Source: Cymodocea nodosa | Lineage: Eukaryota; Streptophyta; Magnoliopsida; Alismatales; Cymodoceaceae | DNA length: 64,000 bases | NCBI GenBank assembly: GCA_036874045.1 | Contig: CM072335.1 | Location: forward strand, 21,273,501 to 21,337,500 | Reading direction: 5' to 3' | Part shown: positions 15,553 through 43,613 of the stretch, piece after piece | How the letters are laid out: each line of letters opens with the position of its first letter | Position numbering within the stretch: position 1 is the stretch's first letter | Translations under genes and position numbers: made by a program | Notes under the pieces: model-generated | Seen by the model: the letters and a program-made list of their open reading frames with translations, nothing else | What the model was told of the DNA's origin: nothing | Databases searched by the model: none

Positions 15553-16164
15553 ATGATTAGTATTTCAAATAATGAAATCTTATTAATGATTGAAGGATAG
15601 AATACTACATGTCCTCCTATGTTTGAAGGTAACAACTATGACTACTAGAAATATAAGATGCAACTATTCTTTTAGTCAATCGATTTTAAAATGTAGCACA
15701 TAATTAACAATCTTATAGTGTTAGTTATGTCTCCATATGATATATGGACTTTTGATGAAAATAAGTGAATAATACTAAATACTAAGAGATTAAACATCTT
15801 ATTTTGTGCTTTATCTCTCAATTTAATAAAGTATCTGCATATCAAACTACACATAAGGTATGACCTGTATTAGAAATTACTAATGAAGGTATTAACTAAG
15901 TTAAAGAATTTAAAATCAACATGTTAGTACATAAATATGAGTTGTTTAAAATACATGAAAATGAATGTATCCCTGATATGTTTTCTCATTTTCTTGAGAT
16001 TGTAAATTCATTAAAATCATTAGGCAAGAAATATGAGAAAAAAGACTTAGTTAGAAACATCCTTAGATTTTTAACTAAGATTTGGAAAGAAGTATAAATG
16101 TGTACACTTTTATTGAAGAGTCCAAAAGACATCTATTGAAGAGTCCAAAAATTTAAATGTGTAC
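15553..16164 (+). pseudogene. Copia B Gag, N-terminal part
   Basis: Begins ATG ATT AGT at 15553 (MISISNNEILLMIEG). After a stop it continues with the copia gag block PPMFEGNNYDY, where the usual Trp codon is TAG, then KYKMQLFF. Other blocks, such as DIWTFDENK and KYEKKDLVRNILRFLTK, follow the usual UBN2-type gag order. The reading frame breaks repeatedly and then stops at the Athila insertion (16165). Confidence 0.78.
16160..16164. other. Target-site duplication TGTAC, left copy
   Basis: TGTAC directly precedes the LTR start TGTTTGGG. The same five bases follow the right LTR at 33389-33393, and copia gag continues on both sides. A 5-bp duplication is normal for Ty3/gypsy integrases. Confidence 0.93.
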
Positions 16165-18370
16165 TGTTTGGGTTTTCCCAGCACTACACTAGAAAAGCTT
16201 GGATTTGTTACTTCTATTTTTACTTAGTTAATTTATCTTTATGTCTATTCTTTCTTTTAAAAGTAAATAAACAACCTTTAATACAATTTAGATATTAATT
16301 CCAATTTGTACTTTAACTACAAGTGCACAGTGTCTATTGTATTAGTGTGCAAGTACAGGTCGATCCCACAGGAAATTGCTGACGAACTTGAGAACTGTTT
16401 GCTTGTTAAAAATCAAATTTATATATTCAATAAGCTCCCCGTTGAATTACAACCAACTCAACGGACTAAGTTCGTTGAGTTATGGATAACTCAACGGACT
16501 AACCTCGTGGACTTAAGTTAACTCCACAAGCCTGTCTTTTCTTTTTAATACTGCTATTTACAAAGGAATTCGGACAACTATTGGGTGATTCCATAGATTG
16601 TAAATAACATCAATTAAGCTCTTTAATGTTAGTTAACATTGGATTTATCATTGAGCAATACTAACATTCAGATAATTCAAATAGTAACCATTAAAATCTT
16701 TGAGTCTTTTGAACGAACCAATTTCAGTAAACTGTAATACTAAAATAAACATAAAACAATTACAACACTAACAAAGATAACATTAATCACAATACAACAC
16801 AAACAATACAACACTCAAATACAACATACAAACATAGATAAATTGTTTTTGGTATTTTTGTTTTAATATGAACATGGAAATGGGCGAAAGGTGAAATGTA
16901 AAGTAATCTCACTTGATAGTAAATACTTCCGATGCTACTTGCAATGCGATTACACTACTAAAAATTAAACCACTTACAATTCTGTCTCCTCTCCCTATAG
17001 AATTGCGAGTCTAGAATTGCAAGATGATCTCCTCTTCAGCATACAGGCATCAACCCGAAGCCAATGCTAAAAGCTTTACGATCTCCTGAAATATGAGTCG
17101 TCACTTGGTGAAAATGGTTTCCCTTCCCGCGACGTGATCACTCCTCACAATGGTTGTCAGGCACTATGTTTGGCTCGGAATCAACTCGACATCAGGCAAG
17201 TATCTTCACAGACCTCTGATGGTTGGTGATTATGGTGTGGTGATGGTGATGATGATGGTTGGTGTGGTACTTTAGAGAATTGTGATGTCGATCCTCCTCT
17301 GCACACACTGTCCACCCATCGATCACACACTTCTTCTTTTTTTCTTCTTTTCTTTTATATTTCTTCAGTAGTAACTGCTTTTGCTTGAATGGTCGGTTGG
17401 ATTTCCTTCATTCATATCAACGGCGATGCTTTCTTCTCCCTATGCGATTGAATTCCTGCGTGATACATGCAAAAGTGGTTTTTCTCTTCCAACTATCTAT
17501 TTCTGCAACTGCTACAGTGGCATATTAGAAAATATATAGTCCGTGGAGTTACAGATAACTCAACGGACTTTCTTCGTTGATTTAATTATAAAACACGTGC
17601 ATAAATTTAACTATCCGATGCTTAGGTGCATTTCGGATACTTATAAACTTAACTATCTGATGCTTAGGTGCATTTCGGATAGTTACAGCTAACTCACCGA
17701 TATATAACTTAAGTAAATCTACCAGATTTCGACACGTGTCAGCAGTAGTTTAATCATAAAATAACATTTCGGAGAATTACAGGTCTAACTATCCGATGCT
17801 TAATGCATTTTAGATAGTTATAGCTAACTCACTGAAAATCCACTTAAGTCACTTTCCCAGAACATGACACGTGTCCTCAGCTATTTTCTAAATAAAAAGA
17901 GATTTCGGAGAGTTACAAGGATAACTATCCGATGCCCAACTGCAATTTCGGATAGTTATAGATAACTCACCGAAAGTTCACTTAAGTCATTCATTATGGT
18001 TTCGACATGTGTACTTCAGGAAATAATAAAATATTCTCTCAAAACATAACTGCTCGGTAATTTAAACATAACTATCTGATACATATTCAGTCTGTTAAAA
18101 ATAACTATCTAAATTTGTTCGGTATGTTAAACATAACTGTCCGAAATATCAGAAAAGTCGGATACTTAAGAATTTCACAGCCTGCAACTTATCGATAGTT
18201 CATAAATGTACTAAATTAACATTAATTCCCCCACATTAATCAAATTCTTCAATTAAAGCATATAATAGTGCAATTGTAACATAATGGCTTAATTCTTATA
18301 TGATAAGCTAAATATTATGCAATTAACCATCATTTAACCCTTAATAATATGCACTTTTTCATTCTAAACA
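16165..18370 (-). repeat. 3' LTR of the Athila element (left)
   Basis: 2206 bp, plus-strand ends TGTTTGGG...CTAAACA. It is ~70 bp longer than its partner, mainly from an extra GGT/GAT-rich run near 17228-17264 and a TTCGGTATGTTAAACATAACT-type duplication near 18117. It contains the shared hairpin at 16455-16481 (arms AACTCAACGGAC and GTTCGTTGAGTT), several AACTATCCGA...TCGGATAGTT palindromes (17609-17684, about 17791, about 17926) and CACGTG at 17594, 17733 and 17868. Confidence 0.92.
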
Positions 18371-18380
18371 CTTCCCCCAT
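18371..18380 (-). other. Polypurine tract next to the Athila 3' LTR
   Basis: Minus strand reads ATGGGGGAAG immediately before TGTTTAG, the expected plus-strand primer site. The sequence behind it ('tacctaaattttgctagtcccttagcaa') recurs in diverged form behind a second purine tract at 19664-19673. Confidence 0.88.
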
Positions 18381-18499
18381 ACCTAAATTTTGCTAGTCCC
18401 TTAGCAAACTAAGATCTAATTAATTGGTCTTTAAAAGTGCTAGAATTAATTCTTCCCCTTTTATTTTTCTTCTATTTAGCGTAAAAATATATTCTGTAT

Positions 18500-19520
18500 G
18501 TTTCAGTAATCAACCTGCAAATATACTTAGAATATATGTAAATTACATACCAAGTATATCATCATCATATAGGTGTAAATTATATTATCGTTTGTTCTTC
18601 TTTTCATCATCTGTCATCTTGAATTTTCCAATAAGATTTCAAGAAGAAATTTCAACAACATACGAATCAGAGTACAATCTAATTCAATCTAATTAAGACA
18701 AGTAGAATAAAGAATTGTATCTCCATTAAACAACTTCAAAAGTCAATTCCAGATTCATATTTCAGCAATTCTAGATAACAGAAAATATACTCGATTCATA
18801 AGATATCTGTATTTCACAAAACACTTGTATCTTTTCAGAACAGTATATGTATATTTTTTTTTTTCGTACTTTAAAAGTTAATTTGACAAGCTCGAATCAT
18901 ACAAGAGCTTTCTAATGTACCTATGTAACGAGCTTTCAGTCAACAATCCTAGATTTGATCAGGATCTTAGGTTGCCAGATTTTAAGAGTCTTTTTTCAGG
19001 TCAACAATCCTTACATACCTATCTGCTCAAGTACAAAAGGCTTGTGATCAAACAAGTCAATAAACTCTCAAAATTTTCCTTTTTTCTTTTTCTTTCAAAC
19101 TACAACCACAAAATAAAACATTAATCACATACTATATATGTATGTATTTCATTAATACAGATGTAGTAAAACGCCAATCTCATATAGTCTTGCTTCTATC
19201 AGTTACTGAAAATATGAATCCATAACAATAAGCTCATACTTTTTCTGTAGTTTAATAAGATCTACACAAATCATTCTACAAGTTCAATCAGTCAAATTAA
19301 ATGTATCTTTAATCATATGTGTTTCATTTAATCTAGAATTCACATCTCAGCTCTTTCAGGACTTCAGATAATTTATTGATTTTTTTTCATTAAGCATTTT
19401 GATTTCATTTTAAAATCGTGAAACTATTAAACTCATGAAATTCAGAAAAACATAAGATACTATATCTAGATTTGCATAAATAGTAAATTCAATAGCATCT
19501 TATATAGTCTTCTAAATATA
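18500..19520 (-). other. Non-coding module shared with copia family A
   Basis: About 1 kb with clear similarity to 57460-58450 (plus) and 39715-40715 (minus), where it follows copia pol. Strongest block: 'acaagagctttctaatgtac' near 18902 and 40106, with the reverse complement near 58030-58055. Next to it is 'gagctttcagtcaacaatc' (18929 here, 40137 in copia A). On the element strand it starts with a stem-loop (TAGCATCTT complement/AAGATACTA, 19454-19501) and ends with the acceptor-like AAGTATATTTGCAGG near 18515. Here it sits directly before the PPT and 3' LTR. No conserved long ORF; ORFs 18424-18696 and 18915-19124 on the other strand are not supported. Confidence 0.82.
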
Positions 19521-20118
19521 ACAGTCAAGCAGTTTATAAAAATTTTACAGTCTCATTTATTGGATAGTTATAGCAAGTTTATAAAAATTTTCAATTTCCA
19601 CAACTTTGCAGTACCATTTTAATTTCTTTAATTAACAAACTTATATGGCTATTACTTCAATTACCTCCCCCCCATACCAACATTTTGCATTGTCCTCAAT
19701 GTAAAAAGATTTCACAATAAGTATAGTAATTGTAGCAAGCATGAATACAGTTTTGCTTGATTTAAAATTAAGGATGAGTAATTAGTTACATACCTTGTTT
19801 CATTTGTATCTCCTTCTACATATTCTGATTTTTTATTCTGAAAAACTTTTCATTCATAGATAAAAGCAAAATATAAAAAAAAAAACATTTAATAGATATT
19901 AATAAATTAGTGTCTTGTGTGGAACCTAGGCTCCTATGCCTTTGGTGGCTCACAAGCGAGCCAGTTGGTTTCCCAGAACAAATACCAACAAACTGGATTG
20001 ATATTTTGTTTTTTTTTTCTTTTATAAAATAAAAATGAAAACTATAAAAAAAATTTTCTCTTTTTTTTTTTTAACAATAAATGTAGAATACACACAACAT
20101 TAAACACAAAATCACAAC
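19521..20118 (-). other. Spacer with a second polypurine-tract-like sequence
   Basis: At 19664-19673 the minus strand reads GGGGGGGAGG. The sequence behind it ('cataccaacattttgcattgtcctcaatg') is a diverged copy of that behind the 18371 PPT. A short GC-richer island at 19915-19990 with 'ggctcacaagcgagccag' forms a small palindrome. No gene seen. Confidence 0.6.
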
Positions 20119-21256
20119 TTAAGAACATGATTGAAAAGTAGAAACAAATGGAATAAATGTATCAGTCCAAGCAAACTTTTTAGGCATAGTTCTTCTTGCT
20201 ATTAATTCTATTTTAATACAATTCTTGTTCCTTCTTAATTTGTAAACATGTAATATATTATAAATTCCAAATACAAGTGTATTACCATTAATGATATGTA
20301 ATGCAGAAAGGGATCCTTTTTGGTTCTAGGGTAATGTAGCAGTTTCTATTTCTACATCTATTTCAATATATTCCTCTTCCCACTTCCATTAATTTATGTC
20401 TTCCATAATCCATATTTGAAATTTCATCAGTTCATCCTACCATCTTATCAGACATAAAGTAGGAGCATCTTTTTCATTATACCACATTCCTATTTGAATT
20501 TCATTAAATTCTGTAGATGGTGGTTTAGCTATTTCACTCGGTACAGGTAAAATTTCATATATTCATCATAGCTGTCTATGCTCACTATGTATAAATCAGA
20601 TCCATATGCTAATGATATCTTCGTGACTAGATATATATATCCATCAAGTATGACATGTGTTTGGTTAATTAATGATTTCTGTCCTAGATATATCATAATA
20701 TTTTCATTTCAAGATCTGTTTAGAAAATTATACACTTAAGCGTAAATCTTCACCCCAATTTCCTATAGGTCTCCAATAATATAATTTTTCAGGAATTGCA
20801 GAATTTTTATCAGAAAATATTAAAGCTGACCCACAATTTATAGTTGGTGCTTCAAATCTATTAGGTCTTCCTATATTCCATTCTTCTCCTGTTATAGGAT
20901 TTCTTATCAAAATATCAGGTAATAATAAACTTGCTTACCTTGGTCTCGTCTTGTATATGATTTAATTCTTCATCTATCCCCATAATATGATTTATTCCTT
21001 CTAATGCATTGGGTGAAATTCCAGTAGTTTCTTCCATAGCCAGATATTCATGGGTATTTGAACTATGATTAAATGACCTCCATATGAATCCATCTCTAAT
21101 CTTAGTCATTTTTGCAGCTTGTAGTCTTTGAAAATATTTTTCTTCAATATAGTCTTTAATTTCCTTTGATACACAACACAGCCTGCACAGATCTTTAGCT
21201 GACAAGTTACTTAATACTTCCCTTAGTGCATCCAATGGTAATTGCATCAATTCCAT
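20119..21256 (-). pseudogene. Intronless F-box protein with FBA domain, carried by the Athila element
   Basis: F-box proteins bind SKP1 and supply substrates to SCF ubiquitin ligases. The start at 21256 gives MELMQLPLDALREVLSNLSA then KDLCRLCCVSKEI, a good F-box (residues ~5-45). The F-box-associated domain follows, in shifted frames: ILIRNPITGEEW (~20905), GNWGEDLRLSV (~20750), LDGYIYLVTKISLAYGSDLY (~20620), IQIGMWYNEKDAPTLCLIRW (~20490), DELMKFQIWIMEDIN (~20435), and ALHIINGNTLVFGIYN near 20280; the stop is at 20119. About 379 codons is normal for the family. Two or more frameshifts and three stops (two where Trp/Glu-type codons are expected) break it. It has no introns and shares the element's strand, between gag core and 3' LTR, which suggests capture as cDNA or RNA. 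Confidence 0.85.
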
Positions 21257-21445
21257 TTGTCAATTCTGTAAAACACAAATAAAAATTTAGCAGAGACAAA
21301 AATTAACATGATACTGCACACCCTCGTGGAGTTAAGGAATAACTCAACGAACTAAGTTCGTTGAGTTAAAAATTAACTCTACGATACTATAAAAAAAACA
21401 AAAAAAACATATATACATACAGATAGTTGCTTTAGATATGCTGCT

Positions 21446-22786
21446 TCATTCAGCTGCCCTCCTAGAAGAGGTATAAATTTCATTAACCGTTCTATTGACA
21501 GGATTAGGTATAGCTTGTATTGGCAATCCTCCAATAGGTCTAACTTCCATTAGTTCCTTCTGTCTAAGTGATATATTTCTATTCTGATTTTGAATTGCAA
21601 CATTTCCAAATATAAATTCTAGACGATTGTTTACTTGGATTATCTTTTCTAATTTCTCTATTCTAGCTCCTTATTCAATTAATACTTCATAACTTATGTT
21701 CTTCTCATTTATATTTTCTCCTCCTTGGAAATTGTTATTTCTCCAAGATAAATTTGGGTGATTTCTCCAATTAGGATGATAAGAATTTCCCAAGTTATCT
21801 CTCTGGTTTCTAGCATAAATAATATCTAAGTCATTTATGTTTGCATTCTTTTCTGCTAGCTTTTGATTTAATGATAACTCTTCTATTTTCTTTGTTAATT
21901 TATTTAATTTCACCTCAAGCAAAGTATTGGAATCTATTTCATGCATTCCTCTTGGCAATTTTCTTTTATCTGCAATAGCTTTAGCTGAATTTTCCCACTA
22001 TGTAGTTTTTTTTGCAAAATTCTCTAAATATGCCCATGCTTCTTCACTACATAATTTTAAAAATCCATTTTGACAAGTAGATTCTAATAAAGATTTCGTT
22101 AAAACATCTATGCCTTCATAAATTATCCCTATTAGTTGTGCTCTACTCATTGCATGATGTGGACATTGAGTCAGTAAATCTTTAAATCTTTCAAAATATT
22201 TCCAGAATGATTCACCCTGTTTTTGGCTACACATTAATATTTCTGTCTTCTTTTTAATCGTTTGATGTGTTGGATAATATTTTTTCAGAAAAACAGAGTA
22301 AAATTCAGTCTATGTAGAAATTGAATTAGGTGATAGAGTATATAACCATCTCTTAGTTGTGTCTTTTAAAGAAAAAGGGATATATCTAAGTTTAATAGCA
22401 TCTATCCTCATGTTCGGCATTTTCATCATTTGACAAACTTCGTTAAATTCTTTAAGGAAATAATAGGCATCCTCTCTTTCTAATCCATGAAAATGTGGTA
22501 ATTGACTAATATAATTAGATTTCAGTTCAAACCTATCTCCCTCAAAGTTTGGTAATCAAATACATGAAGGTTCATCAACTAATTCAGGTTACAGAATCTC
22601 TCCTAATGGTTTTTCTACTGGAGCAGCCATCTCTACGTTCTCTTTTAAAGAAAGGTTAGCTACACCCTAAAGAATTTCGTTAAAGTTCAGTTCAAATTTT
22701 TTTTTAGTACTCCTCTGCAATGAAAATTCCTAGGTAGGTGTTCTTACTAATTGTTTAGTGCTTAGAGAACGAGTCCATGTGCTCAT
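21446..22786 (-). pseudogene. Athila Gag core (capsid-like), displaced downstream of pol, no zinc knuckle
   Basis: Starts MSTWTRSLSTKQLV at 22786. Visible blocks: PLGEIL, the gag entry LPHFHGLEREDAYYFLKEF (near 22500), LRYIPFSLKDTTKRWLYTL (~22385), SFWKYFERFKDLLTQCPHH (~22205), then LESTCQNGFLKLCSEEAWAY. The tail has LTKKIEELSLNQ and YHPNWRNHPNLSW (~21770). This is the Retrotrans_gag architecture of Athila Gag, but no CCHC box lies between the coiled-coil-like part and the NPxWRNHPNxSW-type tail. The knuckle is encoded 8 kb upstream, before the protease. Several stops (mostly at Trp or Gln positions) interrupt it. Confidence 0.85.
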
Positions 22787-23730
22787 AAATAAATAGCAGA
22801 AGATTAATTACATACCAGTCTAAAGCTTTTCATTCTATAAATATTTGTTGTCGGATGAAGTTGAATCAGCTACTTTTCCTTCCAGTTCCTCCAAAGCATT
22901 CTCCATTCTTTTAAAAGTGCTGGTAACTCGTAAATAACATTCTGTTTTATATATATACTACGCATCCATAAAGTGAATAAATCTCATTGCAAGAACGTGG
23001 CTTGCAACATGCATCGTGGTTCTTATTTATATGGGTACGTGTACCACTACTAATTTCAAATTTTGGTAACCGCTAAACCGACGAAGTTTCATTCGTGGTT
23101 AAAAGAATAACCGTTCTGCTTAATCCACGAACTAACCTCGTTGAGTTACAGAAAACTCAACAAAATACAGTCGGTTATTGTTGCTAACTCCACGGACTAA
23201 CTTCGTTGAGTTACAGATAACTCAACGGAGTGACTTTATATTATATTACTGACCTCGTGGAGTTACGGTTAACTCAACGGACTTACTTCGTTGAGTTAAC
23301 ACTTAGCAACATCTAAGTTTTACTCTCGTAAGTTCCTCTCTGTTCTTTTTTTTTTCATTCTGCTAATTGTAATAAAGTTAAATCTATGTCATTAATGCAT
23401 CATTCTAATTAAAATACGTTTAAATCTGAACATTATATAAAGATTTAACTTGCAGGTCATTTTATGTTATGCAGAATTTACATTTTACCTTATAACATGC
23501 AGAAATTTTTAAGCAGTTATCCTGTCATTTAGCAAATTGTAAATCTGTTACATATTCATTTATAAAGTTTCACAAATTACACAATATTCAATAAATTCCA
23601 TTCATTTCACATCCAAAACACGTATGAAAATTGCATCTGAAAAATTTACATTCATTAATATGAATCAATTACATTAAAAGTACATCATACAATTTTATAC
23701 AATTTTACACAAGTAGACGAACAATACAAT
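22787..23730 (-). other. Internal spacer of the Athila element with hairpin repeats
   Basis: No ORF. At 23130-23312 there are five or so alternating 'cgttgagtta' and 'aactcaacgga' blocks, the same hairpin family as in the LTRs, flanked by 'cctcgtggagtta' variants. The sequence between gag and the accessory ORF resembles LTR U3 more than coding DNA, so it may derive from an LTR. Confidence 0.6.
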
Positions 23731-25933
23731 TTAATCTCTATGCCTAAGTTCATCTACTTCCTTCTAGAGTTTTTCTAATTGAAGCTCTAATTAATTAATC
23801 CTCTCTACTACTCGTATAATTCCTCTAAAAGGTACAGCTAGTTCTGCAACTACAAAATTTCTGTATTCTTTCACTGAAATGGTTCTTGCTCTGATCCTTT
23901 TTTATGTCCATTTAGTGAAATCAATACAGTCCACTATCAGTAGTGGAATCAAATCTCCATAAAATAATTTCTTCTTCATTGTTTTCAGCTTGGAGATAAA
24001 AACTACAAACCAATTTATTTGGATCTTATTTACAACTGCATATGTAGTTCATTTGACAAATTGACTTAACTCTATGTCATGGCCCTGTCGTTGATAAACA
24101 TTCTTAATCAGAATGTTAGCTACCATGTGTGCTTTACCATTTAAATGTTTCAATCTGTTTAATAATGGCACACTAGGATTGATAGCTAAACAATCCTTAA
24201 TTTGTTGTTCAGTCCATTCAACTACAGTTGTATCTTCCAAAATTTTTGGTCCTTCATTCTTTAAACCAAAAATGTTGTGGAGACGCTCTAGTGTTATCTA
24301 TACATTAGCTTCCTCCACCTTCGAAATTAATCCTCCTCTTTCTCTCAAATTAGCATAGAAACAAGGCACTAAATTCTCATATACTACATGCCCTCTTTCT
24401 TGAGATATAAATTGCAGTAGACCTTAGAATTCAAATAATTCTTTGATTTCTTGCATTCCATCCTAATTTACTGGTCTACTGTAAATAATATCATAACCCC
24501 TTATTTCTTGATATTTAGTGTAAGCTTCCTGACTACAAAAATGTACTTCATTTAAAATTATTGTTTCAGTCGGGTCAAGAAGGTGACTTTGTTGCTCTAG
24601 AGGGGTTTGCTCTTGCTCTTGCTCTTCCTCTTCTATAGGCTGCATTTGAATATTTTCTACAAATTCCTGAATTTCTGTTTCTGTTTGTGGTGGTAAGCCG
24701 GTAGAACTCTCCACTCTGTCTTGAATTCTCTTCATACATTGCTAAATAGTTTCTTGTTCTTCAATGGAATTTGTGAAATTATTTTTGTCCAAATGGCTTC
24801 TTTCAACCTCTTCATTTTCTGCTCTTTCTTTTTCCTCCTAACTACCAATCTATTATGTTACTGTTCTTTCTGATTCTGTAACAGATTGGGATGGAGTCAC
24901 GGGCAATTCAGTTTCTGCCCTATTTTCTGTTTCTTCTTGTACAGGCTGCAGACTAATTTCAGCCTCATTTTTTTCTTTTCTTTGCTCCTCCTGCTCCTCC
25001 TCAAAATTGGATAGCAGGTCAATAAAAATCTGCTCCACAGGCCTTGTAAAAATTGGTACTTCAGATTTAATTTCCTCATATTCAGGCACTTTTTCTTTTC
25101 CTTTCTTTTTCTGATTAGTTGTGCATGTTCTTCCTCTTCATCTTCTGAAATTAAATCTACAAAAATAGGCTCTACAGTTCTTCGAGCCACAAGTATTGGC
25201 TCTTCTTGTTTAACTTTTCCTATAATTACTGGTCTCAAAGAACTAGCTTTATCTCCTTTTGCAACAGGTTTGGCAGCAGTTCTGGTAGTAGCTTCATGAT
25301 GTTATTCCAATTTGATTTTATATTAGGCTTTCAACTTTTCTGCAACCCTCTTTTATAAAGTGCATCAAACACTAGGTGTGCTTTGGCCACTGCCAAATCT
25401 TCTAATTCTCCTTGCTTCTTCTCAACTTGAACCAGTTCTGCAAATTCTCTTATCTCTTCTTCAGTCAAAGGCCCCATCATTTCTGCTCGTGCCAACGGCT
25501 TAAATGGTGGAACTGAAGGTCCAGGCTACTGCTCCTCAGGAACAGGTCTTTCAGTAGTCAGCTCCTCTTCTCCTTCAGTTGCCTCTTGTTGTTCCTGCCG
25601 CCATATTTCCCAACATCCTCGACCAGCAATGCATTTCTTAAACCACAATCTGGCTTTATGTTGAATTAGCTCTAGTGCTACTTCATTGTTTGGCCGGATT
25701 TTTCTTTCTTTGCTAACTGCAATTTCAGTTGCTACTCTGATTCGTGTCTCTATTATATGGGGTATTTGTATACTACAATCTACTAATATTTTTCTTAATC
25801 TAAAAAGTTCAGATTCTACCTTCTATAACTCTTTTTCTCTCATTGTATTTCTGATCTTCTACCTTGTGTGTCATTCTTCAGATTCCTTCAAAAACTGTGC
25901 AGTGTCCATTGCCTCTTCCTAGAATTTAGGCAT
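23731..25933 (-). pseudogene. Accessory ORF of the Athila element (homologous to the copia accessory ORF)
   Basis: Lies in the position of env-like ORFs, after integrase. Blocks in order: KARLWFKKCIAGRG (~25655), a long acidic Glu/Gln-rich middle (25238-24463), YTKYQEIRGYDIIYSRPVN (~24515), MQEIKELFEF then GLLQFIS (~24450), NLVPCFYANL (~24375), IFGLKNEG (~24265), MVANILIKNVYQRQGHDIEL (24125-24066), NKIQIN and KKLFYGDLIPLLI (~23960). These align with the copia versions (RDLFEFQGLIKFLP, FIANILHANLFQRVGHNLEV, SKLFYGDAVCRLI). No signal peptide or membrane segment, so it is not an envelope. Function unknown; the C-terminal part recalls the plant 'putative plant transposon protein' domain, from memory only. 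Multiple stops. Confidence 0.78.
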
Positions 25934-26688
25934 CATCTTCCTCATCGTGGAGTTACACAATAGCACAGAATCGCTCTGATTTCTACTATTCTAGATTCTA
26001 AATGATTTGCCGGATAATGCCCCCAAAACCTTAGGTTTTAGTTTAAATAAGCCTGAAGTTTAGGCAGGTAATCGGGTCATTTCCTAAACCAACTAGTACT
26101 ATTATATTTGAGGCTTAGCTATAGTACTTCGTTGAGTTAACTCAAGACTCAACGGAGTAAGCTTGTTGAGTTAAACGTAACTCAACGGACTCCCCGTACA
26201 AGCAAATATAATAATAAAAATATTACAAAGAATAGTTTTTCTATTTTTTTATCGGTTTAACCGATACTATGTTTCGGTCAGACCTAAATATTTTTTATTA
26301 TTTATTTTTTTTATTTTTCTTTCGATTGAACCGATACTATGTTTCGGTAAAACTAACATTTTTTTTCTGAAAATTAATATACAATTTTTATATTCCGGTC
26401 ATACCAATGGATCTAGTCGGTTGAACCGCAATGATTTTTATGTTTTATATATATTTTTAATATTTTTTTTTTATATATATATAAACATAAAAACTGATTT
26501 CTCACTAAGTAAAGCTCGAGTAGTCCTCTACTCTGACTTCTTCTATAATTCCAAAGGAGCTTTTTGGTGCTTTCAGAATAGGTTTAAGTCTTTGTCCATT
26601 TACTTTAAATATATTCTGATTTTTAGGATTTTCAATTTTAATAACTCCATAAGGATAAACATTTCGAACTATGTAAGATCCTGCCCAT
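25934..26688 (-). other. Spacer between integrase and accessory ORF with short inverted repeats
   Basis: 26128-26195 holds the shared hairpin family ('cgttgagtt', 'aactcaacgga'). 26252-26278, 26332-26348 and 26416-26428 each carry CGGTTTAACCG-like palindromes, two followed by 'atactatgtttcggt'. The ORF 26421-26711 on the plus strand is AT-rich low complexity. No gene here. Confidence 0.65.
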
Positions 26689-27590
26689 CTAGATTTCGTT
26701 ATGGAGTCTAACCATATAAAGATATACTTCTTGTTCTATTTCAAAGCTTTTTGGAATAATTTTTCTATCATGCCAAAATTTAATTTTTTCTTTTTCTCTT
26801 ACAGTCTTCGAATAAGCTTCATTTCTAAATTCTTCTAATTCAATTAATTGCATTTTTCTATTTTCAGCAGCTTGATTTAAATTAGTGTTTAGAGTTTTTA
26901 ATGCCCAATAAGCTTTATGTTCTATTTCAACAGGTAAATGACAACTTTTTCCATATACTAGCCTAAAAGGTGACATACCTAAGCTCGTTTTATAAGTAGT
27001 TCTATAAGCCCAAAGTGCATCTATCAATCTATTAGCCCAATATGTTCTAGTAGGATTTACTACTTTTTCCAAGATTAATTTAATTTGTTTGTTTGTACTT
27101 TCTACTTGTCCACTTGTTTGCGGATGATATGATGTTGCAATTTTGTGGTCTACTCCACATTTCTTCATTAAGACTTCAAAACTTCTATTAGAGAAATGAG
27201 TTCCTCTATCACTGATAATAGCTTTAGGTATTCCAAATCTAGCAAATATATTTGTTCTTATAAATTGAATTACCACTTTGTTGTCATTAGTTTTTGTAGG
27301 AATAGCTTCTATCCATTTTGATACATAATCCACCCCCAACAATATGTAATTAAATTGATTAGACATAGGAAATGGACCCATAAAATCTATTCCCCACACA
27401 TCAAAGATTTCAACCTCAACAATAGGATTAAGAGGCATCATATTCCTCTTTGATATTCTTCCTATTTGTTAACATCGTAAACAACTTAAACAATATTTAT
27501 GAGCATCTTTGAATAGTGTTGGCCAATAAAACCCACATTGCAGAATTTTTGCACCAGTTTTCCCTGAACCAAAATGCCCTCCATAAGCTT
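26689..27590 (-). pseudogene. Athila integrase
   Basis: DNA-joining enzyme of the element. The largest open piece starts at 27441 ([20 protein letters not shown]) and is 250 residues long. It holds the catalytic D (WGIDFMG), the second D ([11 protein letters not shown]) and the E region ([16 protein letters not shown]), plus the C-terminal part [20 protein letters not shown] and [10 protein letters not shown]. Upstream in broken frames are remains of the zinc-binding H-H-C-C region (HDQAYGGHFGSGKT, CLSCLRC, near 27600-27460). The core motifs are intact but the frame is not continuous with RNase H. Confidence 0.9.
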
Positions 27591-29352
27591 GGTCATGTCA
27601 GAAAGACAATATGCTCGAATATTCAGTTTCTGGAACACACCTCCTTAAAACCAGATCAGGACATTTCTTAAATAAGTATGAGTCTTCCCAATAGTAATAT
27701 TTTACTTTTAAGAAAAACAATTTCTTATCTTGTCTATTCCAATCCTTAGGTGTTAAACCAGTAACTAAGTAATTAACTATGTCTGCATACCAAGACATTG
27801 TGTTGATGGTCATTAATTGTTCATTAGGAAAATTATCCTTAATTTCAATATTTGATTTTTCTATTTGTAATCTTGATAAATGATCTGCTACTACATTCTC
27901 ACAACCTTTTTTATCTTTAATTTCTAGATCAAATTCTTGCAATAATAATATCTATCGGATCAATCTAGGTTTAATTTCTTTTTTCTTTATTAGATGTTTT
28001 AGAGCTGAATGATCCGTGTATACTATTACTTTAGCTCCAATTAGATATGATCTAAACTTTTCTAAAGCAAACACAATAGCTAATAATTCTTTTTCAGTAG
28101 TTGTGTAATTAGCTTGAGCATCATTTAAGGTTTTGCTTGCATAATGAATCACTCTAGGAGATTTTTCTATCTTCTGTCCTAACACTACTCCTACAGCAAA
28201 ATCAAAAGCATCACACATTAACTCAAATGGATGGTTTCAATCAGGTGCTTGAATTATAGGAGTTGAAATTAAGCTAGTCTTATGTCTGAAAAATGCTTCC
28301 TTGCAATTTTTATCAAAGTTAAATGGAACATCTTTTAATAGATTAGTTAAATGTCTAGGTATCTTGCTAAAGTCTTTAATAAATCTTCTATAAAAACCAG
28401 CATGTCCTAGAAATGATCTAATATCTTTTACTAATTTAGGTTCTGGTAGATTAGAAATTACTTCTATTTTAGCTTTATCTACTTCCAAGCCTTTTTTAGA
28501 AACAACATGCCCTAAGACTATTCCTTGTTTAACCATGAAGTGACATTTTTCCCAATTTAAAACCAGATTTTTTTCCATACAGCGTTTTAATATTTGGTCT
28601 AAATTGCTTAAACACACTTCATATGAGTTTCCATATACAGTAAAATCATCCACAAATATTTCTAAAAAATCTTCAGTCATTCCAGTAAATATGCCCTGCA
28701 CACACTTTTGAAAGGTAGTTGGCGCATTGCATAATCCGAATGGCATTCTTTTAAAAGCATAAGTTCCATTAGGACAAGTGAAAGTTGTTTTCTCTTGATC
28801 ATCTAATGCTACTGGAATTTGATTATACCCTAAATACCTGTTTAGGAAACAAAAATATTCTTGCCCTGCTAATCTTTCCAGCATTTGATCTATAAAAGGT
28901 AAGGGAAAATGATCTTTCCTCGTCACAGCATTCAGCTTCCTATAGTCTATACATACTCTCCAGCCTGATTGAATTCTAGTAGGTATCAAGTCTTGACTTT
29001 CATTCCTAATAACTATTAATCCTGATTTCTTGGGAACTACATGGATTGGACTAACCCACGAGCTATCAGAAATCGGATAAATTATATCATTATCTAACCA
29101 TTTAACTATTTCCTTCCTAACTACTTCTTTAAGGTTTGGATTTAATCTCCTCTCAGGAATTCTAATAGGTTTAGCATTCTCTTCTAAATATATGTGGTGA
29201 CAACATAAAGTTGAACTTAACCCTTTTATATCAGTCATATTCCATCCTATTACTTCTTTATAACTTTTTACTACATCTTTTAATTTAGCTATTTGATCCT
29301 CTTTTAAATCTGAAGTAATACTGATTGGACAAGTTCGTTTATCTTCCAAAAA
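27591..29352 (-). pseudogene. Athila reverse transcriptase and RNase H
   Basis: 29349-28237 is an unusually long open piece (370 residues) with RT motifs in order: FPLPFIDQMLERLAGQEYF, FTCPNGTYAFKRMPFGLCNA, catalytic FVDDFTVYG, NLVLNWEKCHFMVKQGIVLG, and SFLGHAGFYRRFIKDFSK. A TGA (28234-28236 region) separates it from RNase H (28218-27952: [47 protein letters not shown]). A TAG at the position of a usual Trp precedes 27942-27598, the RNase H tail and linker with ENVVADHLSRL. A better preserved homologue of 1626-3399. Confidence 0.92.
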
Positions 29353-29629
29353 TATATAGGTTAATTCAAGAGGTAAAGGTTTTAAGTCTAAATGCTGCCC
29401 ATCAGAAGCTAGAGCTCCTAATTGAACATCATCATTTTTTAAATTAATTTCTTCCCGATCTCCTTCTATATTTATGCTTTTACTTTTCTTTTAAAATTTC
29501 AGAATTGATTTGCCTATTTAATTCTTCTTGAATCACATCATCTAACATATCTCCTTCATCTTCTAAAAAGTCTATGGTATGTAAGGACATTTCTAACTCC
29601 TCAAACTTTTCTAGTTTGAAAATATTTAA
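29353..29629 (-). pseudogene. Protease-RT linker, frameshifted
   Basis: Acidic spacer of Pol. In broken frames it shows EKFEELEMSLHTIDFLEDEG and EELNRQI, as in the first Athila copy (1355-1470). The A/T run near 29490 is where the frame is lost. Confidence 0.65.
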
Positions 29630-30142
29630 TTAAGTATCCTCATTACCATATGCTAACTTCATTACTCCATTTTTACAATTTATAACAGCCCCTGATGTTG
29701 CTAAAAATGGCCTTCCCAAAATTAAAGATGTATCACTATTTTTATGCTTAATTTGGTGGGAATCCAAAATTACAATATCAATGGGATATATAAAATTTTT
29801 TATTTTAATTAAGACATCCTCTATTTTTCCGCTAGGGTATCTTATACTTCTATCAGCTAATTGAATAACTATACTAGTAGGAATTAAGCCTTCTAATTCT
29901 AAGGATGCAAATATATCACTTGGTATAACATTTATACCTGCACTTAAGTCTATTAAGGTTCTTTCTAGAATGGTATTTCCTATGGTGCATGATATAACAG
30001 AGATTCCAGGATCAGATAACTTTTTAGGAATTTGTGGCAAAAATAGGGAACTACTTTGCTCAGCTAAAAAGACCTTTCTAAGAACTTTTCGCTCTCTTTT
30101 CTTAGTACACCAATCCTTCAGAAATTTAGCACAAGGTGGCAT
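29630..30142 (-). pseudogene. Athila retropepsin-like protease
   Basis: Open for 170 residues from MPPCAKFLKDWCTKKRERK. The active-site region reads ERTLIDLSAGINVIP in place of the lineage's usual DLGAS, a change it shares with the copy at 832-1590. Later blocks are IQLADRSIRYPSGKIEDVL, VILDSHQIKH and LILGRPFLATSGAVI. It stops at GNEDT where the linker begins. The overlapping plus-strand ORF 29970-30293 is an antisense shadow. Confidence 0.85.
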
Positions 30143-31216
30143 TTTCTACAATAGATCTAACAAAGGAATGTTAACTTGTACTTTTTCAAAAATTTCTCTG
30201 ATTTTTTCTTATTTTTCAGGAATTGTTTGTTGTAATCTTTCAAGACAGGGTGCTAAAGATTTTGATTTCAATGACTCTTTTTCTTTCAGTTGATTTGTTT
30301 GATCATTTTTAGCTTCATTCGCAGATTTAGAATGTTCTTCAGTGATTTCTAGATTTTAAGCTATTACATTTTCATTATCATTTTGATTTTTACTCTTATC
30401 CACCTTCATATCATTTTCATTTTGAGTTCTTGGTGGTATATCAGTTCTAGATCTTAATGTTACACATACATCTTCCAGATTTTCGTTACTTTCATGATGT
30501 TTTTGTATATCATTTTCATGATTATGATCTTCAATTATTTTTAGTTTTAAAGTGCATTCTTTAAATTCTCTTGCATTAGTATTTTCTGTTTGCTGTATAT
30601 TTTACAAATTATGCAGGTTTATAACATTATAATTTTCATTGTCCTGTTGCATAAATTGTATTTTCATTGCATTTTCGTCTAATGCTTTTAATTTTGTTTT
30701 CAAATCATCTAATTTCATTGCATTCAATTTTTGACCAATTTTCTTTATGTTTTTTTCAGTTTCATAAATTATATCCTATTTAGGTTCTTAATATGCTTCC
30801 TTATAGTTTAATTGGTTGACTTCTTATTGTTGACACATAGAGTATTCTAGTTTGTCCAGATTTTGCTCTATACTATGCTCTAGTCTGTCATAGCTATCCC
30901 AAACTTCAGTGTCTCTCATCATATTACACATTCTATACTGACCATCAGTTGGGTAAACAATAGGATTCTCATACTCGGCTCTATTATATTGAGGATAATT
31001 CATTTGTTGTTCATGGAATCTAACCATCTGTAAACGTCTCAGTTTCAAATAATTAGAAATGTCGTGCCCTTCAGAATTACAAAATTCACATATGCTAATT
31101 ATAGGTTTCAGAAATCTTTGAGCATAAGCATATGCCATATTCTCAATTATAGAAGAAAACACACAACTCTGGCTATTAAAATGAAATAGCTCTAACAGTT
31201 GCTTATATCTATTCAA
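30143..31216 (-). pseudogene. Nucleocapsid (zinc-knuckle) ORF and linker to protease
   Basis: The first ORF after the PBS. Only ~45 residues precede a zinc-knuckle-like box CEFCNSEGHDISNY (C-x2-C-x4-H-x4-Y; the last Cys is Tyr). It continues PQYNRAEYENPIVYPTDGQY and VWDSYDRLEHSIEQNLDKL to a stop at 30824, then a decayed Lys/Glu/Asn-rich linker matching 1-760, ending LAPCLERLQ before the protease. The capsid-like gag core expected in front of the knuckle is absent here and lies at 22786-21446. Confidence 0.8.
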
Positions 31217-31226
31217 TTCAATTCAA

Positions 31227-31245
31227 TTCCCCAACAACGGCGCCA
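31227..31245 (-). other. Primer-binding site, tRNA-Asp type
   Basis: Minus strand reads TGGCGCCGTTGTTGGGGAA seven bases after the LTR. It matches the TGGCGCCGTTGCCGGGGA site typical of Athila/Tat elements, apart from C-to-T changes. Confidence 0.9.
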
Positions 31246-31252
31246 TAAAACT

Positions 31253-33388
31253 TGTTTGGGTTTTCCCAACACTACACTAGAAAAATTTGGATTTGTTACT
31301 TTTGTTTTTACTTAGTTAATTTATCTTTATGCCTATTCTTTCTTTTAGAAGTAAACAAACAACCTTTAATACAATTTAGATATTAATTCTAATTTGTACT
31401 TTAACTGCAAGTGCACAGTGTCTATTGTATCAGTGTGCAAGTACAAGTCGATCCCACGAGGAATTGCTGACGAACTTGAGAACTGTTTGCTTGTTAAAAA
31501 TCAAATTTATATATTCAATAAGCTCTCCGTTGAATTACAACTAACTCAACGGACTAAGTTCGTTAAGTTATGGATAACTCAACAGACTAACCTCATGGAC
31601 TTAAGTTAACTCCACGAGCCTGTCTTTTCTTTTTAATACTGCTATTTACAAAGGAATTCAGACAACTATTAGGCGATTCCATAGATTATAAATAACATCA
31701 ATTAAGCTCTTTAATGTTAGTTAACATTGGATTTATCATTGAGCAATACTAACATTCAGATAATTCAAACATTAACCATTAAAATCTTTGAGTCTTTTGA
31801 ACGAACCAATTTCAGTAAATTGTAATACTAAAATAAACATAAAACAATCACAACACTAACAAAGATAACATTAATCACGATACAACACAAACAATATAAC
31901 ACTCAAATACAACATACAAACATAGATAAATTGTTTTTGGTATTTTTGTTTTAATATGAACATGGAAATGGGCGAAAGGTAAAATGTAAAGTAATCTCAC
32001 CTAACAGTAAATACTTCCGACACTAATTGCAACACGATTACACCATTGAAAATTAAACCACTTACAATTCTGTCTCCTCTCCCTATGGAATCGTGAGTCC
32101 AGAATTGCAAGATGATCTCCTCTTCAGCATACAGGCATCAACTCGAAGCCAAGACTAAAAGCTTTACGATCTCCTGAAATATGAGTCGGCGCTTGGTGAA
32201 AATGGCTTCCCTTCCCGCAACGTGATCACTCCTCACAGTGGTTATTAGGCACTGTGTTTGGCTTGGAATCGACCCGACATCAGGCAAGTATCTTCACAGA
32301 CCTCCGATGGTTGGTGTGGTACTTTAGAGAATTACGACGCCGATCCTCCTCTACACACACTATCCGCCCATCGATCACACACTTTTTTTCTTCTTCTTTT
32401 CTTTTATATTTCTTCAGTAGTAACTGCTTCTGCTTGAATGGTCAATTGGATTTCCTTCATTCATATCAACGACGATGCTTTCTTCTCCCTACGTGATTGA
32501 ATTCCTACGTGATACGTGCAAATGTGGTTTTTCTCTTCCAACTGTCTATTCCTGCAACCGCTACAGTGGCATATTAGAAAATATATAATCTGTGGAGTTA
32601 CAGATAACTCAACGGACTTTCTTCGTTGATTTAACTATAAAACACATGCATAAATTTAACTATCCGATGCTTAAGTGCATTTCAGATACTTATAAACTTA
32701 ATTATTCAATGCTTAGGTGCATTTCGGATAGTTACAGCTAACTCACCGATATATAACTTAAGTAAATCTACCAGATCTCAACATGTGTCAGTAGTAGTTT
32801 AATCATAAAATAATATTTCAGAGAGTTACAGGTCTAACTATCCGATGCTCAGATGCATTTCGGATAGTTACAGCTAACTCACCGAAAATCCACTTAAGTC
32901 ACTTTCCTAGAACATGACACGTGTCCTCAACTATTTTCTAAATAAAAAGAGATTTTGGAGAGTTACAGGGATAACTACCTGATGCCCAACTACAATTTCA
33001 GATAGTTATAGATAACTCACCGAAAGTTCACTTAAGTCATTCATTATGATTTCGACACGTGTACTTCAGGAAATAATAAAATATTCTCTCAAAATATAAT
33101 TGTTCGGTAATTTAAACATAACTATCCGATACATATTCAGTATGTTAAACATAACTATCTGAAATATCAGAAAATTCGGATACTTAAGAATTTCACAGCC
33201 TACAACTTACCGACAGTTCATAAATGTACTAAATTAACATTAATTCCCTCACATTAAGCAAATTCTTCAATTAAAGCATATAACAGTGCAATTATAACAT
33301 AATGGCTTAATTCTTATATGATAAGCTAAATATTATGCAATTAACCATCATTTAACCATTAATAATATGCACTTTTTCATTCTAAACA
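31253..33388 (-). repeat. 5' LTR of the Athila element (right)
   Basis: 2136 bp with plus-strand ends TGTTTGGG...CTAAACA. Over the first ~390 bp I count a little over 20 differences from the left LTR, all transitions. Hairpin at 31542-31570 (one arm changed to GTTCGTTAAGTT), AACTATCCGA palindromes at about 32658, 32836 and 33120, and G-box-like sites partly decayed to CATG forms. ORFs 31394-31609 and 32254-32496 fall within it and are not genes. Confidence 0.92.
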
Positions 33389-33393
33389 TGTAC
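33389..33393. other. Target-site duplication TGTAC, right copy
   Basis: TGTAC follows CTAAACA at the end of the Athila 5' LTR and repeats 16160-16164; copia B gag resumes here (TACACTTTGGATGATC). Confidence 0.93.
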
Positions 33394-36461: not shown

Positions 36462-36477
36462 ATCTCCCCCTTTTTGA
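36462..36477 (-). other. Polypurine tract of copia A (minus)
   Basis: Minus strand AAAAAGGGGGAGAT precedes TGTTGAGC. The same sequence is at 61693-61707. Two more 'ctccccctttt' tracts occur at 36666-36676 and 36706-36716, matching the tandem purine tracts of other SIRE-like 3' regions. Confidence 0.85.
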
Positions 36478-36909
36478 TGATAACAAAATCATATTAAATC
36501 AATTATAAAATATGTTTAACTCAATGAAGCACCTCTATTGGGTTAAGTTTTAATTCAACAAACAAGTTTGTTGACTTAAGTTCACTTAAGGTTATATCTG
36601 TTGTTTGTGTAAAAAACATCTCTTAGAAGTAAAACTTTCAGAAAAATTTCAACAATTACATAATCATCTCCCCCTTTTTAATATATGCATTTAAACTCAT
36701 AATCATCTCCCCCTTTTTGTCATTAATCAAAAAGATCATTACACAGTATAAAAATCGAGAGACAAGTATGCACAACTAAACTTTCTATAAACATTAATAA
36801 GAATGAAAACACATTTACAGTAAAATGTATTGTTCAAATAGTCAAACAATAAATACAAACATTATATTTTGTATTCAAACATCAAATAAATAGACAAATG
36901 ATAATACAT

Positions 36910-39714: not shown

Positions 39715-40715
39715 CCTCCTACAAATATACTTCAAATATATTCAATAACATACAAAATATAATTATATAAAATAGGTGTTAATTGTAACTATACTTTAAA
39801 TTTTTCTTTTTAGAAAATTTTCGTTATCCTAAATTCATCAAGAATGATTTCTAGAATCAACTCCAACTATATATGAATCAAAACATAACTTTAAACTTAA
39901 TATGATTAACACAAGGAGAATAAAGAAATGTATATTAAATAAACAATTTCAAAAGTACTAGTTTAGATTCAACAAGTTAGTAGTCATATTGGTAGAAACT
40001 ATATTTGATTCAAAGATATTTGTATTTAATGAAACAACTTTTATCTTTTCAAAATAGTAAATGTTGATAATTTTCTTTAAAAGTTAGTTTGAAAAACTTG
40101 AATCATACAAGAGCTTTCTAATGTACCCGTGTAATGAGCTTTCAGTCAACAATCTTAAGTCTAATCAAGAACTTAGATTGCTAGATTTAAAGAATCCTTT
40201 TTTAGGACAACAATCCTTATAAACTTATCTACTCAAGTATAAGAGGCTTGTGATCAAACTAATCAATAAACTCTCAAAGATTTTCACTTTGTAAGCACTT
40301 TTTATTTTAAGCACAATATATATGTATTTCATTAATACAAATGCAATAAAACACAAGTCTCATACAATTTTTACTTCTCTGATTTTACTAAAAATATGAA
40401 TCAATTTCAATAAGCTCATACATTTGATCAGTAGTTTAATATGATTTACATATAAATTATTCTACAAGTTTAATCAAACAAGTCAAACTCATTTTTGATC
40501 ATATGCACTTTCATTGATCCAAAGAAAACACTTAATCAACATTTCAGGATTTTAGAGGAATTTAATGTTTTTCATTGACATTTCCACCTAAAATTTTAAA
40601 AACCATTAAACTTAGAAAAATAAGTAAAATCAATAAGATACTACTATAATTTTATCGTAAATACATAGTATCTTATACAATAGTTTGATATTACTTAGAT
40701 ATTTATGATAAGTAT
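39715..40715 (-). other. Non-coding module between pol and accessory ORF (copia A, minus)
   Basis: Diverged copy of 57460-58450 and of 18500-19520 in the Athila element. It includes the block 'acaagagctttctaatgtac' (40106-40125) and 'gagctttcagtcaacaatc' at 40137. On the element strand it begins with a stem-loop (arms 40635-40643 and 40666-40674, AAGATACTA/TAGTATCTT) and ends with an acceptor-like TATATTTGTAGG at 39719-39730. No coding potential. Confidence 0.82.
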
Positions 40716-43300: not shown

Positions 43301-43613
43301 TGATGATGTCAAAACCTAATAAGTTAAATAATCTATCTTCTCCCCCTTTTTGGCATTATAAAAAAGTAAATAATCTATCTTCAACCTCTTTAGTAATTAA
43401 GTCATTTAAATGTAAGGAAGAAAAACCTTGCTAAGTATACATGAATCAAAAAGATATTTTTAAACATGCATAACTTTAGTGGATTAAGCATAAACTGTTT
43501 AAACATAAACTGTGAAAAATAATCACATGAGCATTAAGTGCAGTAAACAATTTACATAATATTTTTGGTAACAAATTACAATAAATAAATCATGTAATAC
43601 ATAATTTGTATAA

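What the first reader, a model, noticed from the sequence alone, without database searches (positions are those of the whole stretch)
23731..25933. One accessory ORF carried by both Ty1/copia and Ty3/Athila elements
The downstream ORF of the Athila element and the downstream ORFs of three copia copies (36910-39185, 43614-45843, 58967-61212) share, in the same order: a WFKK head motif, an acidic middle, an E(L/M)F(E/K)FxGLL/I block, an FYxNL block, GLKNEGV, the (F/V)I/VANIL...GH(N/D)(L/I)E block, NxIQ(I/V)N and KLFYGD. Pol genes of the two superfamilies are unrelated at this level, so the ORF must have moved between them, or both captured the same host gene. It sits where env-like genes sit but has no signal peptide or membrane helix, so it is probably a nuclear or particle-associated factor. 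It could be a shared helper protein.
Basis: partly seen in the sequence, partly recalled or inferred. Interest (0 to 1): 0.86.

Follow-up and report, generated by a model that had tools for sequence, protein, structure and literature searches.

The report
Accessory gene shared by unrelated retrotransposons
Two unrelated classes of plant jumping genes in this genome carry, behind their copying machinery, accessory genes built around the same protein domain, so the poorly understood "envelope-like" genes of both classes may come from one family of traded spare parts rather than being true viral envelopes.

Summary
The minus-strand ORF of the Athila element and the 3' ORFs of the three copia copies share one ~210-residue domain: an unbroken copia piece matches the window Athila ORF over all 213 residues (32%, E=1.5e-35), and Pfam PF20167 independently finds both kinds. 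Only this C-terminal domain is shared; N-terminal halves do not cross-match, so the WFKK head is not supported. The copias carry the Sirevirus polypurine octamer. A nested copia insertion is excluded. The domain is under purifying selection in both (dN/dS 0.17 and 0.26); the sharing is old. Among seven Athila elements the ORF's synonymous divergence is about 2-7 times that of its flanks, with separate bootstrap intervals in 20 of 21 pairs, which fits cassette exchange. A ~1-kb non-coding segment is 71-78% identical in DNA between the superfamilies. PF20167 in Athila is in print (PMC11728184); sharing with Sirevirus was not found in ten searches of openly licensed papers. Function is inferred: an intracellular, probably nuclear helper, not an envelope.

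The parts
16160..33393 (-). Athila (Ty3) element carrying the ORF, bounded by 5-bp target-site duplications GTACA
   Evidence: LTRs 33388-31253 and 18370-16165, 90.8% identical; GTACA next to both outer ends; PBS-like TGGCGCCGTTGTTGGGGA; PPT-like TATGGGGGAAG
31253..33388 (-). Athila 5' LTR
16165..18370 (-). Athila 3' LTR
26692..31222 (-). Athila ORF1 region: zinc-knuckle-like piece (by eye), protease, RT (PF00078, E=8e-28), RNase H, integrase
   Evidence: RT by Pfam, protease by Pfam in the locus copy L026 (below its cut-off); RNase H and integrase named by recall
23731..25933 (-). Athila accessory ORF (the finding), broken by many stops and frameshifts
23854..24489 (-). PF20167-like domain of the Athila accessory ORF
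   Evidence: E=1.5e-35 to the copia domain over 213 aa
24958..25271 (-). two tandem SUMO-interaction-like motifs, each after a K-x-E site, in the acidic N-terminal part
   Evidence: the reading of the motif is recalled, not a tool hit
36913..39185 (-). copia1 (Sirevirus) 3' accessory ORF; domain 37749-37111
43617..45846 (-). copia2 3' accessory ORF; domain 44567-43932; no pol beside it, so its place in Sirevirus rests on the octamer and on ORF similarity
58967..61209 (+). copia3 (Sirevirus) 3' accessory ORF; domain 60364-61002
36464..36714 (-). three AGGGGGAG Sirevirus-type polypurine octamers behind the copia1 ORF
43340..43347 (-). AGGGGGAG octamer behind the copia2 ORF
61396..61705 (+). two AGGGGGAG octamers behind the copia3 ORF
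18514..19504 (-). segment X, Athila copy: non-coding, between the F-box ORF and the 3' PPT
39718..40677 (-). segment X, copia1 copy, between pol and the accessory ORF (72% identical to the Athila copy)
57653..58321 (+). segment X, copia3 copy, between pol and the accessory ORF (73%)
21446..22910 (-). capsid-type gag ORF (PF03732, E=8.5e-13) lying downstream of pol and of the accessory ORF
20918..21271 (-). F-box ORF of the element, N-terminal part (PF00646, E=9.7e-11)

Best explanation
Shown: the 3' accessory ORFs of this Athila family and of two Sirevirus-like (Ty1/copia) families end in one homologous, selectively constrained domain, a distant branch of PF20167 (Transposase_32), fused to N-terminal halves that do not match between the superfamilies. 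Inferred: the domain passed between the superfamilies long ago, by template switching or recombination between elements sharing a cell, and remains a mobile cassette, since in Athila elements it is far more diverged than the genes around it. Inferred, weaker: the protein is an intracellular, mostly nuclear helper. The conserved C-terminal domain would bind something common to both element types (element RNP or cDNA, or a shared host protein), the variable N-terminal half would face the host (SUMO-interaction-like motifs in Athila, a Lys/Arg/Gly-rich basic tail in copia), and it would act in silencing defence or nuclear delivery rather than membrane fusion.
For: Homology: (213 of 213 residues, E=1.5e-35); PF20167 finds both kinds (copia piece E=3.6e-4, Athila piece E=2.6e-5; genome scan); a profile of the joint alignment against 5.77 billion proteins gave three hits at E<=1 from 1382 candidates, and the two besides the near-identical P0001 are P0002 and P0003 (E 0.32 and 0.41, not significant alone), both already labelled PF20167. 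Position: Athila integrase on the same strand upstream in 7 of 9 fetched Athila-type loci and in the window; copia RT on the same strand upstream in 4 of 5 ORFs of the copia1/3 kind whose N-terminal part was found. Constraint: dN/dS 0.17 (12 Athila copies) and 0.26 (7 copia copies) against 0.38 (6) and 0.48 (3) for RT; frame control 0.16 / 0.52 / 1.02. Cassette: ORF dS above flanks with separate bootstrap intervals in 20 of 21 pairs; fourfold-site transversions 0.14-0.27 against 0.025-0.083 in flanks. DNA shared between superfamilies: segment X. Not membrane-like: highest 19-residue mean hydropathy 1.44 over 13 pieces.
Against: Both kinds are below the PF20167 cut-off. No usable structure: pLDDT 47 and 44; best PDB sequence match E=0.26. 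The tree does not settle direction: with the long third row included, the Athila rows form one side of a branch in only 17% of bootstrap trees, so transfer either way, or two captures from one pool, stays open. The copia2 kind had no pol beside it in 0 of 2 copies seen (window, L017). In copia the raised synonymous divergence is weak at fourfold transversions (domain 0.076, middle 0.058, RT 0.068; N-terminal part 0.132). Nuclear role and SUMO reading rest on motif recall; no such motif was noticed by eye in the copia ORFs. One genome only.
Confidence: 0.7

Rival explanations
1. Both superfamilies captured the domain independently from host genes of the PF20167 family.
For: Long branch between the two kinds; N-terminal halves do not match; a third, more distant PF20167 copy exists at C7:15000938.
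Against: None of the 14 PF20167 hits (31 candidates scored) was recognised as a free host gene: 11 Athila-type, 2 copia-type, and the third type has weak RT-like matches about 2.4-3 kb upstream. Both kinds sit in the same place and sense, and segment X shows shared DNA between the two superfamilies.
Confidence: 0.22
2. The Athila ORF is a copia fragment inserted into one Athila copy.
For: Copia pieces are nested near several Athila loci.
Against: The ORF recurs behind Athila integrase in 7 of 9 fetched loci, is on average 32% identical to the copia1/3 kind while those copies are on average 80% alike, and has its own N-terminal half that recurs in Athila copies.
Confidence: 0.01
3. It is a real envelope-type (membrane fusion) protein, as the name env-like suggests.
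For: Position between pol and 3' LTR; Sirevirus and Athila ORFs have been called env-like, and transmembrane and coiled-coil domains have been reported for Sirevirus ones (PMC2829016, PMC3414828, passages).
Against: No membrane-like segment in 13 pieces examined (hydropathy only); highly charged; PF20167-related.
Confidence: 0.04
4. The excess synonymous divergence of the accessory ORF is not cassette exchange but a raised mutation rate or selection to change nucleotide sequence (for example to escape homology-dependent silencing).
For: Third-position GC is higher in the ORF (0.25-0.30) than in pol and gag (0.20-0.21; F-box 0.24); copia shows a milder excess even between young copies.
Against: Transversions at fourfold sites are raised about 1.7 to 11 fold over the flanks in Athila, so C-to-T decay is not the cause.
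Confidence: 0.25
5. Segment X is a third-party repeat or captured host piece that entered both superfamilies separately.
For: X is non-coding and very abundant (5479 first-look candidates, 40 scored, contexts not surveyed).
Against: X lies at a fixed place in each family: before the 3' LTR in the window and in 6 copies at 5 fetched Athila loci, and between pol and the ORF in the 3 copia copies seen.
Confidence: 0.3

Closest known systems
PF20167 Transposase_32, 'Putative plant transposon protein'; Athila 3' aORF of sunflower (PMC11728184, abstract and passages read)
   Same: Athila lineage, sense-strand ORF between pol and 3' LTR, PF20167 match, predicted nuclear there; that paper calls PF20167 related to PF03078 (Athila ORF-1)
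   Different: Here the same domain is also in Sirevirus-like (copia) ORFs; scores are below the Pfam cut-off; the Athila element also has a 3' capsid gag and an F-box ORF
SIRE eORF-3'F / Sirevirus env-like gene (PMC6317226, PMC3414828, PMC2829016, passages read)
   Same: Copia elements with AGGGGGAG octamers and a sense ORF downstream of pol
   Different: Neumann et al. 2019 found eORF-3'F in 74% of SIRE elements, in 19 groups with little or no mutual similarity, and left the origin open; here two copia families share a domain with each other and with Athila
ORF3s shared between retroelement classes in bdelloid rotifers (PMC5408684, abstract and passages read)
   Same: Accessory ORFs traded between unrelated retroelements as modules
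   Different: Animal elements, enzymatic ORF3s (GDSL esterase, DEDDy exonuclease); here a plant domain of unknown biochemistry shared by Ty1/copia and Ty3/gypsy
MtRetro3 / ToRTL1 / SIRE1 env-like proteins (PMC4093653, passages read)
   Same: Similarity among copia env-like proteins
   Different: No link to a Ty3 ORF was reported in the passages read; [quoted passage not shown]

Membership tests
PF20167 (Transposase_32) | Pfam score at or above the curated cut-off of 45 bits | tested here: not met
   copia piece 20.9 bits, Athila piece 24.6 bits; only the third-type piece L009 reaches 45.5
PF20167 (Transposase_32) | Significant match over most of the profile | tested here: met
   E=3.6e-4 over profile 16-146/177 (copia) and 2.6e-5 over 15-139/177 (Athila); the two further hits bear PF20167
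Sirevirus (SIRE lineage of Ty1/copia) | AGGGGGAG polypurine octamers, clustered behind the env-like gene | tested here: met
   6 of 6 octamers in the window lie on the sense strand just 3' of the three copia ORFs; 0.33 expected, 0 of 100 shuffles reach 6
Sirevirus (SIRE lineage of Ty1/copia) | RT placement in the SIRE clade | not tested
   No reference RT set was at hand; pol only shown to be copia type (RVT_2 weak at 29.4 bits, gag_pre-integrs 60 bits)
Athila lineage of Ty3 | Ty3-type RT and tRNA-Asp-type primer-binding site | tested here: inconclusive
   RVT_1 E=8e-28 and PBS-like TGGCGCCGTTGTTGGGGA (its assignment to tRNA-Asp is recalled); lineage not placed in a tree
Athila lineage of Ty3 | gag capsid domain between 5' LTR and protease | tested here: not met
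   the 5' ORF starts at a zinc-knuckle-like piece; the PF03732 capsid lies downstream of the accessory ORF
Retroviral envelope | Signal peptide and membrane-spanning helix | tested here: not met
   hydropathy only, on pieces; no dedicated predictor was available, so a weak test
Retroviral envelope | Membrane fusion activity | not testable with these tools
   bench work

The most novel reading that the evidence does not exclude
Sireviruses and Athila elements of one plant genome form a trading network: they share an ancient accessory-protein domain that still moves between Athila elements as a cassette, and, much later, a ~1-kb non-coding segment (possibly a structured RNA signal with splice-site-like ends). 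The env-like genes of both superfamilies would then be one family of host-facing nuclear helpers, which would recast the plant endogenous-retrovirus idea.
Probability: 0.35. Interest if true: 0.8.

Novelty: new variant of a known kind. Interest (0 to 1): 0.6.

Why it matters
The origin and role of env-like ORFs in plant retrotransposons have long been open. A published survey found the SIRE ORFs split into 19 mutually dissimilar groups (PMC6317226, passages), and a Sirevirus database paper states the origin is unknown (PMC3414828, passages). A domain common to Sirevirus-like and Athila ORFs gives a concrete, testable homology, argues against an envelope function, and suggests that unrelated retrotransposon superfamilies of plants trade genes. 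The Athila family described here also has a capsid gag placed behind pol and an F-box gene.

Tried and rejected
Rejected: chance similarity (E=1.5e-35 over the whole domain); a nested copia insertion; WFKK head homology. C-to-T decay as the cause of the synonymous excess was rejected for Athila.

Led nowhere: protein searches with single pieces (one near-identical hit; none); structures of pLDDT 47 and 44, so no fold search was run; PDB sequence search (best E 0.26); NCBIfam (nothing for the domain pieces); Rfam (none; one hit, E=0.66, far below its gathering score). The RNA fold of the X core is only suggestive: one strand folds at z=-2.2, 5 of 200 shuffles as low; RNAalifold gives -37.5 against -25.3 +/- 3.6 in column shuffles, 0 of 200 as low, but only 1 of 69 pairs has a two-sided change and 16 of 69 are broken in at least one sequence. 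A repeat alignment of the X core was badly framed and not used. A paper search for gag behind pol found nothing (narrow phrase). PMC155253 is not held.

Full report
What the window is. The window lies at C1:21273501-21337500 of a 374.6-Mb assembly of 28 contigs, a plant by its contents. The ORF of the finding belongs to an Athila-like element on the minus strand, bounded by LTRs 33388-31253 and 18370-16165 (90.8% identical), with GTACA at both outer ends, a primer-binding-like sequence behind the 5' LTR and a purine tract before the 3' LTR.

The shared domain. Within the window alone, a piece of the Athila ORF and a piece of the copia3 ORF match at E=4e-6. A copia copy elsewhere supplies one unbroken 213-residue piece spanning the domain (L018:5394-6032). 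It matches the window Athila ORF (24489-23854) over 213 of 213 residues at 32.4%, E=1.5e-35; window copia2 at 44.6%; the third kind L009 at 29.5%, E=4e-14; and 9 of 9 fetched Athila-type loci, best E per locus 2.4e-8 or lower, some split at tile edges. Four smaller stretches fetched later gave two more Athila-type and two more copia-type copies. PF20167 scores the copia piece at E=3.6e-4, an Athila piece at 2.6e-5 and the third kind at 1e-11; only the last passes the curated cut-off. The genome scan with PF20167 gave 14 matches from 31 scored candidates: 11 Athila-type, 2 copia-type, 1 third kind. A joint profile against 5.77 billion proteins found three hits at E<=1: P0001, and P0002 and P0003 at E 0.32 and 0.41, both pre-labelled PF20167. 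Those two E-values alone are not significant; that both bear the expected label is the evidence.

What is not shared. N-terminal pieces of the Athila and copia ORFs find only their own kind at E<=1e-4; the copia1/3 and copia2 kinds match each other weakly there (30% and 28%, E=2e-8 and 2e-5). The WFKK motif is therefore not supported as a common feature.

Who carries it. Copia3's pol is of Ty1/copia type by gag_pre-integrs and a weak RVT_2 match, and copia1's pol is about 82-88% identical to it in protein pieces. The octamer AGGGGGAG, described as the Sirevirus polypurine tract and clustered behind the env gene (PMC2829016, passages), occurs six times in the window, all on the sense strand just behind the three copia ORFs; 0.33 expected, 0 of 100 shuffles reach six. 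Copia RT lies upstream on the same strand in 4 of 5 ORFs of the copia1/3 kind whose N-terminal part was found (window copia1 and copia3, L018, L029); the fifth (C15) has an oppositely oriented copia pol of another family upstream. Neither of the 2 copia2-type copies seen (window, L017) has a copia pol beside it, so that kind is placed with copia by its octamer and its ORF. Athila integrase lies upstream on the same strand in 7 of 9 fetched Athila-type loci and in the window; the two others, both on C15, are rearranged or truncated.

History. A tree of 20 domain rows (matches under 130 columns dropped) puts the copia1/3 and copia2 kinds in one clade (99/100) on a branch of 1.22; mean identities are 32% Athila to copia1/3, 36.5% Athila to copia2, 45% between the copia kinds. 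Whether the copia clade sits beside or inside the Athila rows is not resolved: the very long third row attaches among them and the Athila rows form one side of a branch in 17% of bootstrap trees. The sharing is old, and no recent transfer of the ORF between the superfamilies is seen.

Selection. Domain dN/dS (Nei-Gojobori, own script) is 0.17 over 12 Athila copies and 0.26 over 7 copia copies, against 0.38 (6 copies) and 0.48 (3 copies) for the RT pieces (matches of at least 55% identity and 60% coverage). Reading the Athila domain in the two wrong frames gives 0.52 and 1.02. The acidic middle is less constrained (0.41 Athila, 0.77 copia). The protein was kept by selection while the elements spread. 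The genome scan with the copia piece scored 150 of 11620 first-look candidates; the listed ones are 91% identical or more and several have open frames of 704-776 residues with no stop in the match.

Cassette behaviour. In seven Athila elements (window, C7, C3, C19, two on C5, C16) mean dS is 0.21 for integrase, 0.30 for RT (6 pairs), 0.26 for RNase H (10 pairs), 0.25-0.35 for gag and 0.35 for F-box (15 pairs each), but 0.86 for the domain, 0.76 for the acidic middle and 1.53 for the N-terminal part (21 pairs each, some saturated). The pooled ORF exceeds the pooled flanks with separate bootstrap intervals in 20 of 21 pairs; the exception is C7 with one of the C5 elements (0.28 against 0.21). 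In the 6 pairs with C16 only pol serves as flank. Fourfold transversions are 0.14-0.27 in the ORF against 0.044, 0.083 and 0.025 in pol, gag and F-box. Non-coding yardsticks against the window copy (LTR pieces mostly 70-89% identical, X 77-86%) are nearer to the flanks than to the ORF. I read this as exchange of divergent ORF cassettes between similar backbones; raised rates are the rival. In copia dS is also higher in the ORF, but fourfold transversions are clearly raised only in the N-terminal part (0.132; middle 0.058, domain 0.076; RT 0.068), so no cassette claim is made there.

Segment X. A ~1-kb non-coding segment before the Athila 3' LTR (19504-18514) is 71-73% identical to the stretch between pol and the ORF in copia1, copia3 and L018, in the same orientation; copia1 against the other Athila copies gives 74-78%. 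It contains AG-GTATGTAAG in 6 of 9 copies and ends in TTTGCAG or TTTGTAG in 6 of 7 Athila copies. The two superfamilies thus share DNA that is far less diverged than the ORF domain, passed directly or through a third source.

How it may work. Steps shown: homology, constraint, position, absence of a strongly hydrophobic segment in the pieces examined. Steps inferred: nuclear helper role. In the Athila ORF's N-terminal region, motifs of the form EPIFVDLIS followed by acidic residues, often after K-x-E, occur twice in 10 of 11 copies and once in the eleventh, some of them degenerate; from recalled knowledge these resemble SUMO-interaction motifs and SUMO sites. The copia1/3 ORFs begin with a Lys/Arg/Gly-rich basic stretch. 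These parts differ while the C-terminal domain is common, which fits an adaptor. I put the adaptor role at about 0.4 and the homology itself near certainty.

Known and new. PF20167 in an Athila 3' ORF is published for sunflower (PMC11728184, abstract and passages). SIRE eORF-3'F proteins are described as 19 dissimilar groups with open origin (PMC6317226, passages). Accessory ORFs shared by unrelated retroelements are known in rotifers (PMC5408684, abstract and passages). A shared domain between Sirevirus and Athila ORFs was not found in ten paper searches, which cover only openly licensed papers; the older Athila and SIRE1 papers themselves could not be read.

Noticed in passing
21446-22910 (-) and 20918-21271 (-); also C7, C3, C19 and two C5 loci: This Athila family has its capsid gag (PF03732) downstream of pol and of the accessory ORF, followed by an F-box ORF. 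The order ORF-gag-F-box recurs in 5 of 9 fetched Athila-type loci, and the C7 locus has paired LTRs (89% identical) with the same full order; its target-site duplication was not clear.
   Followed up: partly
L026:6020-8476: An 819-residue open 5' ORF of this family begins at a zinc-knuckle-like piece (by eye) and runs into protease and RT (Pfam), with no capsid upstream, so gag looks split in two.
   Followed up: partly
20100-21271 (-); genome-wide: The F-box ORF is a high-copy element gene: 150 scored of 5228 candidates, at least 85% identical in the list, some frames of 398-416 residues with no stop in the match; dN/dS 0.38 over 7 copies.
   Followed up: partly
spacers near 26130-26190, 23140-23300, 21340-21370; LTRs; 7761-7789: The motif GTTGAGTTA, often as a palindrome with TAACTCAAC, occurs 21 times in the window (0.83 expected) and sits in the spacer before the accessory ORF, before gag and before the F-box ORF. 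Possibly regulatory.
   Followed up: partly
18495-18520 (-), 21270-21330 (-), 22820-22840 (-): Splice-site-like sequences conserved between copies: GTATGT inside the gag 5' part (9 of 9), ATACAG or TTACAG before the F-box ATG (6 of 7), TTTGCAG or TTTGTAG at the end of X (6 of 7) (matches over 80 bases only).
   Followed up: partly
18860-19090 (-): The core of segment X folds better than column shuffles (0 of 200 as low) but lacks real covariation.
   Followed up: partly
L009:9406-9951: A third kind of PF20167 protein (45.5 bits) with weak RT-like matches upstream; its element type was not worked out.
   Followed up: partly
43205-43383 and 45843-46022: A 180-bp direct repeat (92%) flanks the copia2 ORF, with no pol between.
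   Followed up: no
48773-50190 (+): A GC-richer stretch whose translation looks like a reductase of the NAD(P)-epimerase kind (by eye); not searched.
   Followed up: no
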